From contig NZ_LT855386.1 of NCBI RefSeq assembly GCF_900184735.1, forward strand, positions 124,001-188,000: a stretch of DNA of 64,000 nucleotides, in the 5' to 3' direction. This DNA comes from Paucisalibacillus globulus. Its GTDB lineage: Bacteria; Bacillota; Bacilli; Bacillales; Amphibacillaceae. Below the pieces are notes generated by a model, which saw only the letters and a list, made by a program, of their open reading frames with translations, was not told the origin of the DNA and made no database searches. This document shows positions 34,505-57,496 of this stretch, one piece after another. Made by a program: the position numbers and the translations under genes. Position 1 is the first letter of the stretch. Each line of letters opens with the position of its first letter.

Positions 34505-34846
34505 GTTTACACCTATCTTTCTTCTTTTTATATCGACACTATCTAGAGATGTATTAGACTGTTTTCTAAAAGATTGTTGTCTTCCCAGTATTTAACAAAG
34601 AGTAGATAGAAACTGCGCGGTAACGTACTATTAACCCTCATAATTAAAAGAGGATAGTGGAACGATTACCGCTCCGGCAGAAGACTCCTGCGGGAATAGC
34701 ACGTGTCCGAAGACAGAGCAGTTCCTATCAAAATAGTATCAAACTGTACTCAAATAGCCTTATCTAATCAAATATGTTGAATGGTTTATGACCAATAATT
34801 GATAAAGTAAAAAAAGAAAAGACATCCATCATTATGACGTATGTCT
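34505..34846. other. 342-bp gap upstream of rnhB with a repeat element
   Basis: It holds an AT-rich rnhB leader, the short repeat copy (34604..34731) and the rbgA terminator (34809..34847). A TCTAAAAGA-GTTGT stretch at 34564..34580 resembles the outer flank of the long copy at 46202. No gene is seen. Confidence 0.7.
34604..34731. repeat. Short copy of the palindromic intergenic repeat (R1)
   Basis: A 128-bp element. The left end GATAGAAACTGCGCGGTA (34605..34622) and the right end GCAGTTCCTATCAA (34718..34731) are near-inverted copies of each other and match the ends of the long copies. The inside retains ACCGCTCCGGCAGAA (34668..34682) and then a block from arm A (34682..34714) in the opposite orientation to that of the long copies. 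Most of both arms is missing. Confidence 0.85.
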
Positions 34847-36711: not shown

Positions 36712-36806
36712 CCTGCTTCACTCCTTCCAAACCAATGCTCATAATACAAGATGGTAACAGCGGAACATCGTTTATATGCACTTAATCGTACTTAAGCACA
36801 ATAAAT

Positions 36807-46171: not shown

Positions 46172-46227
46172 AAACCTTACTACTTAATCTGAGGCTAATT
46201 TCTAAAAGACCGTTGCAAAAAACACAC

Positions 46228-46647
46228 TTGATAGAAATTGTGCGGTAGATCCACCATAATTAAAGTGGGATAGTGGTACATACCGCTCCGGCAGAATACT
46301 CCGCTTTCCGCGGGCCCGGCCTCAGCCTCCTCGAGGAAAGTTCGCCTCTGCGGGGTCTTCGGACACGTGCTTTTCCCGCAGGAGTCTCCGTATTCTGCCT
46401 GCGCTAGTTTAAGTATTCTAATTTAAGATAGCAAATAATTTTTGTGTTGGTGTAAAGTGCTTATAATTTCCAATCATTACGAGCGTAGGAAATACACGGA
46501 GACTCCTGCGGGAGGATAGGCATCGGTGAGACCCCGGAAGAGCTTTAGCTCTGAGGAGGCTCACCAGCCGCCCGCGGAAAGCGGAGTGTATTTCAGGAGC
46601 GGGTATGTTGCTCCCAACTAAAAGTCATACCGCGCAGTTTCTATCAA
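46228..46647. repeat. Long palindromic intergenic repeat, copy R2
   Basis: A 420-bp element ending in TTGATAGAAATTGTGCGGTA (46228..46247) and its inverse TACCGCGCAGTTTCTATCAA (46628..46647), 18 of 20 paired. Inside are two GC-rich hairpin arms: A (about 46289..46402, closed by GGCAGAATAC/GTATTCTGCC) and B (about 46489..46594, closed by GAAATACAC/GTGTATTTC), with an AT-rich linker. Both arms contain ACTCCGCTTTCCGCGG and CCCGCAGGAGTCTCCGT in opposite orientation. It aligns in reverse complement with the copy at 56295..56809. Confidence 0.92.
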
Positions 46648-46714
46648 CCGTGCAACAAGAATTTCGTGCTAGTCCCCAATATTAATCTGTGTTGTTTAGT
46701 AGTATTATCAATAA

Positions 46715-46752
46715 AAATAGCATACTAACTCAATTGAGTCAGTATGCTATTT
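46715..46752 (-). terminator. Terminator of rnc (bidirectional)
   Basis: A long stem AAATAGCATACTAACTCAA / TTGAGTCAGTATGCTATTT with one mismatch and almost no loop has T-runs after it on both strands. It could serve rnc and the convergent DUF1128 transcript. Confidence 0.82.
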
Positions 46753-56257: not shown

Positions 56258-56294
56258 AGTAGTACTAATTAGTACGTACAGTTTGTTACTATTT

Positions 56295-56809
56295 ATAAGA
56301 AACTGTGCGGCTAATAGTTGTGGTTGGGAGCAACATACCCGCTACAGAAATACACTCCGCTTTCCGCTGGCGGCTGGTGAGCCTCCTCAGAGCTAAAGCT
56401 CTTGCGGGGTCTCACCGATGCCTATCATCCCGCAGGACAATGGTTTTCGGTGGGGCGAGTAATCGCAGTCCCAAGGAACGCTACGAAAGCGATACATCGC
56501 ACGCAGAAAAAGTGATTTTATTTTTCAAGGAGTCTCCGTGTATTTCCTTCGCTAGTTTGAGTGAAAAAAGATTAACAATTAAAACCAACACAATCATTAT
56601 TTGCTATCTTAAAGTAGGAAACCTAAACCAGCGCAGGCAGAATACGTAGACTCCTGCGGGAATAGCACGTGTCCGAAGACCCCGCAGAGGTGGTTTTTCC
56701 TCGAGGAGGCTGAGGCCGGGCCCGCGGAAAGCGGAGTATTCTGCCGGAGCGGTAACATACCACTTTCATCTATAATAGAAATGACAATCGTTACCGCACA
56801 GTTTCTAAC
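56295..56809. repeat. Long palindromic intergenic repeat, copy R3 (reverse orientation to R2)
   Basis: A 515-bp element. The left end AAGAAACTGTGCGG and right end CCGCACAGTTTCT are inverted copies of each other and match the ends of R2. Arm B (about 56347..56549) and arm A (about 56634..56745) appear in the order expected for the reverse complement of R2. Arm B is interrupted by about 94 bp flanked by AGGA (56434..56437 and 56528..56531). The linker also aligns with R2. Confidence 0.92.
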
Positions 56810-56848
56810 ACACTATTTGTAGATTAAACTAATCGGTATATCAACAAT

Positions 56849-57496
56849 TTATTCTTGGGAATTTTCCTCTTCCCATACCTGATTTAAAACTTGAGAAAAT
56901 ACTTCTACCGGTTGCGCACCAGATACAGCATATTTGTTCACAAACACAAAGAACGGAACACCTTGTACACCGACAGTTCGTGCTTCTGATATATCTTGTG
57001 TTACTTTATCGCTATAGGCTTCAGATTGTAAGATACTTTTTACTTCCACACCATCAAGTCCAACTTCTTCTGCCAAATTAACAATCGTATCTGAATCGCT
57101 TAGTATTTCACCTTCTGTAAAATGGGCCAAGTAGAAGCGATTAAAGAATTCATTTCCTAAGCCTTTTTCTTTTGCATATTGAAAAACGCGGTGTGAGTCA
57201 TTTGTACTAGCAAGCTTGGCTGTATTGTAATTAATATCTAAGCCAGAATCTTTCGCCATATCGACAACTTGATTTAGCATTGTATTAGCCTGTTCCAATG
57301 GTATTCCTTTCATTTCTGAGAAGGTTTGTGCATAGCCCTGATTAGGAACATATTTTGCATCTGGCATTAGTAAGAAGCTCTTATATTCCACTTCTACTTC
57401 ACTTCTGTGTTCAAAGTTTTCTAATGCTTTTTTCAGATGAGATTCCCCTATAAAGCAGAATGGACATACAAAATCTGACCATATCGTTATTTTCAT
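56849..57496 (-). CDS. DsbA-family oxidoreductase (FrnE/YwbO-like)
   Basis: Thioredoxin-fold protein of 215 residues with CPFC at 11-14 (WSDFVCPFCFIGE) and the cis-Pro loop GVQGVPFFVFVNKYAVSGAQ. No signal peptide is seen, so it is probably cytoplasmic. It resembles the FrnE-type DsbA branch (B. subtilis YwbO). Its ATG overlaps the stop of the 61-residue gene upstream, so the two are coupled. Its substrate is unknown. Confidence 0.92.
   Translation of the reverse strand: MKITIWSDFVCPFCFIGESHLKKALENFEHRSEVEVEYKSFLLMPDAKYVPNQGYAQTFSEMKGIPLEQANTMLNQVVDMAKDSGLDINYNTAKLASTNDSHRVFQYAKEKGLGNEFFNRFYLAHFTEGEILSDSDTIVNLAEEVGLDGVEVKSILQSEAYSDKVTQDISEARTVGVQGVPFFVFVNKYAVSGAQPVEVFSQVLNQVWEEENSQE

What the first reader, a model, noticed from the sequence alone, without database searches (positions are those of the whole stretch)
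46228..46647. 420-bp repeat with terminal inverted repeats and two paralogous palindromic arms between DUF1128 and rnc
Seen directly: the ends TTGATAGAAATTGTGCGGTA and TACCGCGCAGTTTCTATCAA pair at 18 of 20 positions. Inside are two large GC-rich hairpin arms that share ACTCCGCTTTCCGCGG and CCCGCAGGAGTCTCCGT but point in opposite directions, so the whole unit is a palindrome of palindromes. No coding capacity is apparent. This resembles a non-autonomous (MITE- or REP-like) mobile element or a structured RNA. Inference: it moved by an enzyme encoded elsewhere in the genome.
Basis: partly seen in the sequence, partly recalled or inferred. Interest (0 to 1): 0.72.

Follow-up and report, generated by a model that had tools for sequence, protein, structure and literature searches.

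The report
Miniature transposon carrying two conserved hairpins
The 420-bp palindrome is the inside of a non-coding jumping element about 490 bp long, with at least 60 copies or remnants in this genome, whose ends match IS1595-type transposons of related bacteria, and it carries two copies of a hairpin that is scattered through most of this bacterial family and whose function is unknown.

Summary
In detail: the ends pair at 18/20 and the two GC-rich arms are paralogous and inverted. The unit is dispersed; 60 loci were examined in this genome, a lower bound.

The given coordinates miss the true ends, GGCTGTTTTC on both sides. In the 14 of 60 loci with both ends recognisable, the flanks carry an 8-bp target duplication (5.29/8 against 3.19 for mismatched pairs, 0 of 200,000 permutations). 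The window copy has an exact octamer, TTAATCTG. smc-DUF1128-rnc is syntenic in 11 of 11 genus genomes; the element is absent from that gap in 9.

Three IS1595 transposons of related genomes share the A end, with a similar B end and perfect 8-bp duplications. It is an IS1595-derived MITE.

Unexplained is the arm, a directional ~127-nt hairpin with covarying stems, in 131 of 159 family genomes, better conserved than the inner repeats beside it, without an Rfam match.

The parts
46184..46191 (.). left copy of the 8-bp target-site duplication TTAATCTG
   Evidence: exact match to 46682-46689; 124 of 100000 shuffles of the two 25-bp flanks give such a pair within 6 bp of each junction (this tolerance was chosen after seeing the repeat)
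46193..46227 (+). outer A end of the transposon (degenerate GGCTGTTTTCTAAAAGATTGTTG...)
   Evidence: aligned to the A-end consensus, score 32 against at most 23 in 30 shuffles
46228..46249 (+). inner inverted repeat, left (consensus TTGATAGAAACTGTGCGGTAAC)
46277..46407 (-). L arm: structured hairpin, paralogue of the R arm, read on the - strand
   Evidence: covariance model R1, 91.4 bits
46408..46479 (.). AT-rich spacer between the arms
   Evidence: sequence; 73% mean column consensus against 95-96% for the arms
46480..46608 (+). R arm: structured hairpin
   Evidence: covariance model R1, 136.7 bits (this arm is also one of the 28 sequences of the model); RNA fold z -4.2
46626..46647 (-). inner inverted repeat, right
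46648..46681 (-). outer B end of the transposon, strongly degenerate in this copy (last base 46675, 46677 or 46681 depending on the alignment)
   Evidence: not above shuffles on its own
46682..46689 (.). right copy of the 8-bp target-site duplication TTAATCTG
56264..56855 (-). second copy in the window (L040), with an extra hairpin module inserted in one arm; right edge approximate
34557..34759 (+). third copy in the window, a 203-bp internal-deletion derivative keeping both outer ends
   Evidence: A-end match; sequence; flanking octamers match at 4 of 8

Best explanation
The feature is a non-autonomous miniature transposon (MITE) of the IS1595 family. Its outer ends, A (GGCTGTTTTCTAAAAGATTGTTGTTTTT...) and B (GGCTGTTTTCGTACAGTTTGTTGC...), resemble the two ends of IS1595-family transposons in related genomes, A almost exactly. 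A transposase supplied in trans cut and joined at these ends and duplicated 8 bp of AT-rich target (shown: ends, duplication, partner type with such ends; inferred: the act itself). The inside is cargo: a 22-bp inner inverted repeat enclosing two diverging copies of a structured hairpin. The cargo occurs in either orientation relative to the outer ends, and in one locus is replaced by an unrelated interior, so the inner repeats behave as recombination boundaries (flips shown; mechanism inferred, probably template switching or recombination between the repeats). No transposase of this type was found in this genome, so the copies are most likely fossils of an old burst. The hairpin arms are older and more widespread than this transposon and were probably picked up by it.
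For: Dispersed copies sharing arms and inner repeats. 8-bp duplication in the 14 of 60 loci with both ends recognisable, highest excess at length 8 of the lengths 2-12 tested, 0 of 200,000 permutations. The same kind of test on up to 11 elements of another family (GAGGCTGGGACA) gave nothing beyond its 54 trials (lowest 0.028). Exact octamer at the window copy. Orthologous gap of about 58-166 bp without this element in 9 of 11 genus genomes. IS1595 transposons L189 (= L170), L209, L210: their A ends match the MITE A end at 27, 26 and 28 of 28, with perfect 8-bp duplications ATAATTAA, TTAATGAA, AAATCAAT; transposases of 335-336 aa, 89.6-94.6% identical. Family by NF033547 at 3.4e-63 and PF12762 at 2.7e-18 for L170. 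Flips: 17 normal, 7 flipped of 24 loci with a usable A end.
Against: No IS1595 transposase in the own genome, nor in G005 and G010, which hold many copies. The B end is the weak half: it matches the IS right ends at 24, 24 and 21 of 28 but the left ends at 22, 21 and 22, so for L210 it is no closer to the right end, and at the window copy it is not above shuffles. The drop of similarity outside GGCTGTTTTC is partly built in, because copies were chosen by a query ending there; the duplication and the IS ends are the independent support. The duplications are degenerate in the 14 copies (3 to 7 of 8). Two of the 24 flip calls (L099, L105) rest on weak arm matches. L170, read in full, contains neither the inner repeats nor the arms, so how the cargo got between these ends is not shown.
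Confidence: 0.92

Rival explanations
1. The arms, or the two-arm core, are the real unit: a family-wide structured element (RNA or cruciform/ssDNA) recognised by a host or helper protein, with the IS1595 ends as only one of several vehicles.
For: 131 of 159 family genomes match the arm; 11 of 11 genus genomes match the model, the own genome at 140 places, a lower bound. 12 of 37 pairs have two-sided changes, a count reached by 0 of 500 shuffles and by no slid version. All 14 non-overlapping close arm pairs among the 49 loci have the same diverging arrangement, 6 of them in other genera, so the two-arm layout is older than this genus. In the 40-locus alignment the arms stand at 95-96% mean column consensus against 83-84% for the inner repeats and 73% for the spacer; in 14 copies arms average 93-94% identity to consensus against 87% (A) and 83% (B) for the outer ends. 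In other members of the genus single arms sit inside a different element, GAGGCTGGGACA...TGTCCCAGCCTC.
Against: No Rfam match at gathering threshold. No orientation bias relative to flanking ORFs: 13 '<<', 12 '>>', 9 '><', 8 '<>', 3 with one side missing and 1 inside an ORF, of 46 contexts in other genomes (mechanical ORFs). No linked protein was found. The covariation counts sequences, not independent events, and the structure was derived from the same alignment; one of the five measures, pair types, was reached by 12 of 500 shuffles. It complements the MITE reading more than it replaces it.
Confidence: 0.4
2. REP/BIME-type repeat moved by a RAYT (Y1, HUH) transposase.
For: GC-rich paired palindromes; RAYT-like genes exist in most of the genus.
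Against: In 26 loci with Y1 matches an arm was seen in one only, about 1.1 kb from an IS200/IS605-like gene. G009 gave 40 arms but no Y1 match. The 8-bp duplication does not fit a Y1 mechanism (the mechanistic point is recalled).
Confidence: 0.03
3. A giant bidirectional transcription terminator of the convergent DUF1128-rnc pair, kept for that function.
For: It lies between convergent genes; one search classed 10 of 40 own loci as convergent.
Against: As I read the sequences, most species without the element have a short hairpin in the same gap, and the own genome still has one on the rnc side at 46715-46752 (no terminator scan was run). One search classed 24 of 40 copies as tandem, 5 as divergent and 1 unresolved; it ignores short genes and misclassed the window locus itself, so these counts are rough.
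Confidence: 0.05
4. An ISL3-family MITE.
For: ISL3 elements also have GG ends and 8-bp duplications (recalled).
Against: No ISL3 match in the own genome, and no end match in the 17 loci fetched with ISL3 matches (several are cut by contig ends), whereas IS1595 loci have these ends.
Confidence: 0.01

Closest known systems
IS1595-family insertion sequences (here L170/L189, L209, L210)
   Same: A end nearly identical (26-28 of 28), B end similar (21-24 of 28), 8-bp duplications. [quoted passage not shown] L170 has that domain.
   Different: The window element has no transposase gene and carries inner repeats and hairpin arms that L170 lacks.
Bacterial MITEs such as bcr1, RUP, NEMIS, ERIC, EFAR
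   Same: Non-coding, terminal inverted repeats, multicopy (list from a passage of PMC3733652, which gives 70-300 bp as the size).
   Different: About 490 bp; IS1595 ends; two directional hairpins that exist widely outside this MITE; cargo flips relative to the ends.
Stem-loop repeat families such as Bhal-1 of Bacillus halodurans (PMC2267715)
   Same: Stem-loop repeat in a Bacillaceae genome; 74 bp, 36 copies (table passages).
REP/BIME elements with RAYT transposases
   Same: Dispersed GC-rich palindromes, in inverted pairs (general features recalled).
   Different: No linked RAYT gene seen; 8-bp duplication of the host element.

Membership tests
IS1595-derived MITE | termini match those of an autonomous IS1595 element | tested here: met
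   A end 26-28 of 28; B end 21-24 of 28 to the right end but 21-22 to the left, so B is weak
IS1595-derived MITE | 8-bp target-site duplication | tested here: met
   14 of 60 loci usable; 0 of 200,000 permutations; exact octamer at window copy
IS1595-derived MITE | no transposase gene inside | tested here: met
   largest ORFs inside are 44 and 48 aa
IS1595-derived MITE | dispersed copies and empty orthologous sites | tested here: met
   60 loci; absent from the rnc gap in 9 of 11 genomes
IS1595-derived MITE | autonomous partner in the same genome | tested here: not met
   0 matches in G000 with PF12762 and with the L170 transposase; not strictly defining for an old MITE, intact partners exist in related genomes
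IS1595-derived MITE | trans-mobilisation by the transposase | not testable with these tools
   needs a transposition assay
REP/BIME | linked RAYT (Y1) transposase gene | tested here: not met
REP/BIME | GTAG or CGTC tag at the palindrome foot | not tested
   not examined systematically; the arm foot is mostly AGCG in the alignment
structured non-coding RNA | covarying base pairs | tested here: met
   12 of 37 pairs with two-sided changes, 98.9% of cells paired; also compatible with a DNA palindrome
structured non-coding RNA | known Rfam family | tested here: not met
structured non-coding RNA | fixed orientation relative to genes | tested here: not met
   13 against 12 in tandem contexts of other genomes (mechanical ORFs)
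structured non-coding RNA | transcription | not testable with these tools
   no expression data

The most novel reading that the evidence does not exclude
The diverging two-arm core is an independent, ancient nucleic-acid element of this Bacillaceae lineage, kept by selection for its hairpin shape (as cruciform/ssDNA or RNA) and bound by an unidentified protein. It rides on unrelated repeats (IS1595 ends here, the GAGGCTGGGACA element in sister species), which would explain why the arms change less than the sequences that carry them.
Probability: 0.35. Interest if true: 0.7.

Novelty: new variant of a known kind. Interest (0 to 1): 0.48.

Why it matters
A tool-less reading of sequence found a real transposon family, and its autonomous partner type could be named from sequence alone. 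Beyond that, the arm is a high-copy structured repeat in most sampled genomes of a bacterial family, with no Rfam match and no description in the papers I could search. Arms, inner repeats and outer ends sit in the same copies, which gives an internal control: the arms are more alike between copies than the repeats and ends next to them. That makes selection on the hairpin, or gene conversion between copies, directly testable.

Tried and rejected
Rejected as partner: ISL3 transposases and Y1/RAYT transposases. Rfam gave nothing for the element: no match at gathering threshold; two sub-threshold matches at E 0.065 and 0.5 to unrelated families are taken as chance. Phage records: no match. Plasmid records: six partial matches, within the arms. 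Phylum sample: 4 of 398 genomes match the arm, the own genome included, the other three in the same order or class, with only 2 candidates scored per genome.

The GAGGCTGGGACA element showed no convincing target duplication (10-11 elements, 54 trials, lowest 0.028). Arms of other genera mostly show no clear flanking inverted repeat within 130 bp; the clear ones are of the GAGGCTGGGACA type (35 loci). In one search the outer-end columns (50-56%) are no better than columns further out (54-57%), because that alignment mixes A and B ends; I do not use them as a measure of decay. The sense strand of the arm folds somewhat better (-53.9 against -48.0 kcal/mol), not decisive. Two-sided changes outnumber one-sided ones (33 against 11 cells), which could mean DNA-level palindrome correction, but the events are not independent.

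The first IS1595 searches undercounted: one search found matches in 2 of 11 genus genomes, one search missed one of them (G003), and the transposase itself found intact or partial matches in 6 of 11; the own genome had none in any of the three.

Literature: ten searches (listings with starts of abstracts) gave no description of this element or arm. Only passages were read, of PMC2267715, PMC3733652 and PMC8101967. The library lacks most subscription papers, so absence from print is not established.

Full report
OBSERVATION. The described features are present: the 20-bp ends pair at 18 of 20, the two shared words occur in both arms in opposite orientation, and the two ORFs of 40 aa or more inside are 44 and 48 aa. 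The unit folds far better than shuffles on both strands. A covariance model made from 28 R-type arms (the window's own R arm and 27 from other genomes) recognises both window arms, on opposite strands.

COPIES. A search of the window's own assembly (3.92 Mb, 23 contigs) gave 116 matching pieces at E <= 0.001, from 40 scored of 174 candidates. I examined 40 loci from that search (30 returned by it, 10 fetched) and 20 further loci found with the end sequence. Of the 60, 49 hold two arm pieces, 4 three or four, 5 one and 2 none; of the first 40, 32 keep both inner repeats and 8 one. The window holds three copies: the reported one, a second at about 56264-56855 on the minus strand, and a 203-bp deletion derivative at 34557-34759. 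Some copies carry extra modules of 51-90 nt at fixed places in the arms, bounded by CTTT/CTTG or AGGA/AGGA or their complements. Among named public genomes an exact inner repeat was found in seven stretches of two, Paucisalibacillus globulus DSM 18846 and Paucisalibacillus sp. EB02.

TRUE ENDS AND TARGET DUPLICATION. Aligning flanks showed two longer outer ends beyond the inner repeat: A, and a shorter B. Similarity stops at GGCTGTTTTC, with AT-rich noise beyond (partly built in, since the query ended there). In the 14 of 60 loci where both ends passed the thresholds, the octamers outside agree at 5.29 of 8, against 3.19 for mismatched pairs; lengths 2-12 were tested and the excess is greatest at 8 (7, 9, 10 and 12 also fall below 0.05 in 5,000 permutations); 0 of 200,000 permutations reach the value at 8. 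The other 46 loci were dropped because no pair of ends passed. A related test on 10-11 elements of a different family found nothing beyond its 54 trials. The window copy lies in an exact octamer repeat, TTAATCTG, 1 bp outside the left GG and 4 bp outside the right CCCC; 124 of 100,000 shuffles do as well.

EMPTY SITE. smc, DUF1128 and rnc are syntenic in 11 of 11 genus genomes. The DUF1128-rnc gap is about 628 bp here, 453 bp in G010 with a truncated copy, and 58-166 bp in the other nine, which lack this element. In one of those nine, G004, the gap holds what I read as an arm-less relative of the GAGGCTGGGACA element. The element therefore probably entered in the shared ancestry of G000 and G010, unless it inserted twice.

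THE PARTNER. Following places that matched mainly the A end led to L170 in G006: a 1,880-bp transposon with A and B ends and a perfect duplication ATAATTAA. Its 335-aa protein is an IS1595-family transposase (NF033547, 3.4e-63; PF12762, 2.7e-18), with a helix-turn-helix passenger gene. In the family search 15 of 159 genomes had a PF12762 match (an undercount, since it missed G003). Among the loci fetched, two more elements with open transposase frames (L209, L210) have such a pair of ends and perfect duplications TTAATGAA and AAATCAAT; the three transposases are 89.6-94.6% identical. The MITE A end matches theirs at 26-28 of 28; the B end is less decisive. Other IS1595 elements there have different ends, such as GGCTCTGTTA. 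The literature passage read agrees that IS1595 members usually make 8-bp duplications (PMC8101967). No match was found in the own genome with the domain or with the L170 protein, while 6 of 11 genus genomes have an intact or partial match.

CARGO BEHAVIOUR. Relative to the A end, the L-to-R cargo is in one orientation in 17 and the other in 7 of 24 loci with a usable A end (two calls weak). L102 has the ends and inner repeats but an unrelated GC-rich repetitive interior. I infer that the inner repeats act as recombination boundaries.

THE ARMS. The R-type arm is a directional hairpin of about 127 nt: the model scores the opposite strand of the same arm at 23.6 bits against 136.7. On 28 arms from the genus and other genera, 98.9% of cells are paired and 12 of 37 pairs have two-sided changes; 0 of 500 shuffles and no slid structure reach these two values, while one further measure was reached by 12 of 500. 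It matches in 131 of 159 family genomes and 42 of 46 genera, but in 4 of 398 phylum genomes. Model counts in the genus run from 5 to 140 per genome, at most 150 candidates being scored. Among 49 loci from other genomes, 14 held two separate arms close together, all 14 in the same diverging layout; 6 of these lie in other genera. In the 40-locus alignment the arms stand at 95-96% mean column consensus, inner repeats 83-84%, spacer 73%, links 66-69%. In the 14 copies with both ends, A averages 87% and B 83% identity to consensus against 93-94% for arms, although these copies were chosen for good ends. Part of the spacer and link diversity may be older than the insertions. No orientation bias relative to neighbouring ORFs was seen. 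What the arm does is not known.

VERDICT. A new IS1595-derived MITE family, confidently assigned, carrying an older structured repeat as cargo. The MITE is ordinary in kind; the arm is the part worth follow-up.

Noticed in passing
L170:2945-4824 (G006): IS1595 transposon carrying two passenger genes, a helix-turn-helix regulator and a 133-aa protein without Pfam or NCBIfam match.
   Followed up: partly
L045, L047, L048, L050, L055-L057, L060, L065, L117, L178: A second repeat family, GAGGCTGGGACA...TGTCCCAGCCTC, mostly 232-240 bp (L178: 355), in several cases seen with a single arm at its centre; terminator-like ends, no convincing target duplication.
   Followed up: partly
L102:2055-2370: Copy with the same outer ends and inner repeats but an unrelated interior of GC-rich tandem repeats.
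   Followed up: no
L026, L027, L029-L037, L039, L040: Extra modules inserted at fixed places in the arms, bounded by 4-bp repeats CTTT/CTTG and AGGA/AGGA or their complements.
   Followed up: no
L121-L127, L130-L135, L137, L138, L142: RAYT-like Y1 transposase genes in most genus genomes, with no arms within about 1.5 kb.
   Followed up: partly
window 36732-36771: Ribosomal protein L19 leader (Rfam RF00556) on the minus strand.
   Followed up: no
L198 (G004), DUF1128-rnc gap: What I read as an arm-less relative of the GAGGCTGGGACA element, which may show that element before the arm came in or after its loss.
   Followed up: no
G001, G004, G007, G009: Partial matches to the IS1595 transposase, 42-49% identical, possibly remnants of other IS1595 elements.
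   Followed up: no
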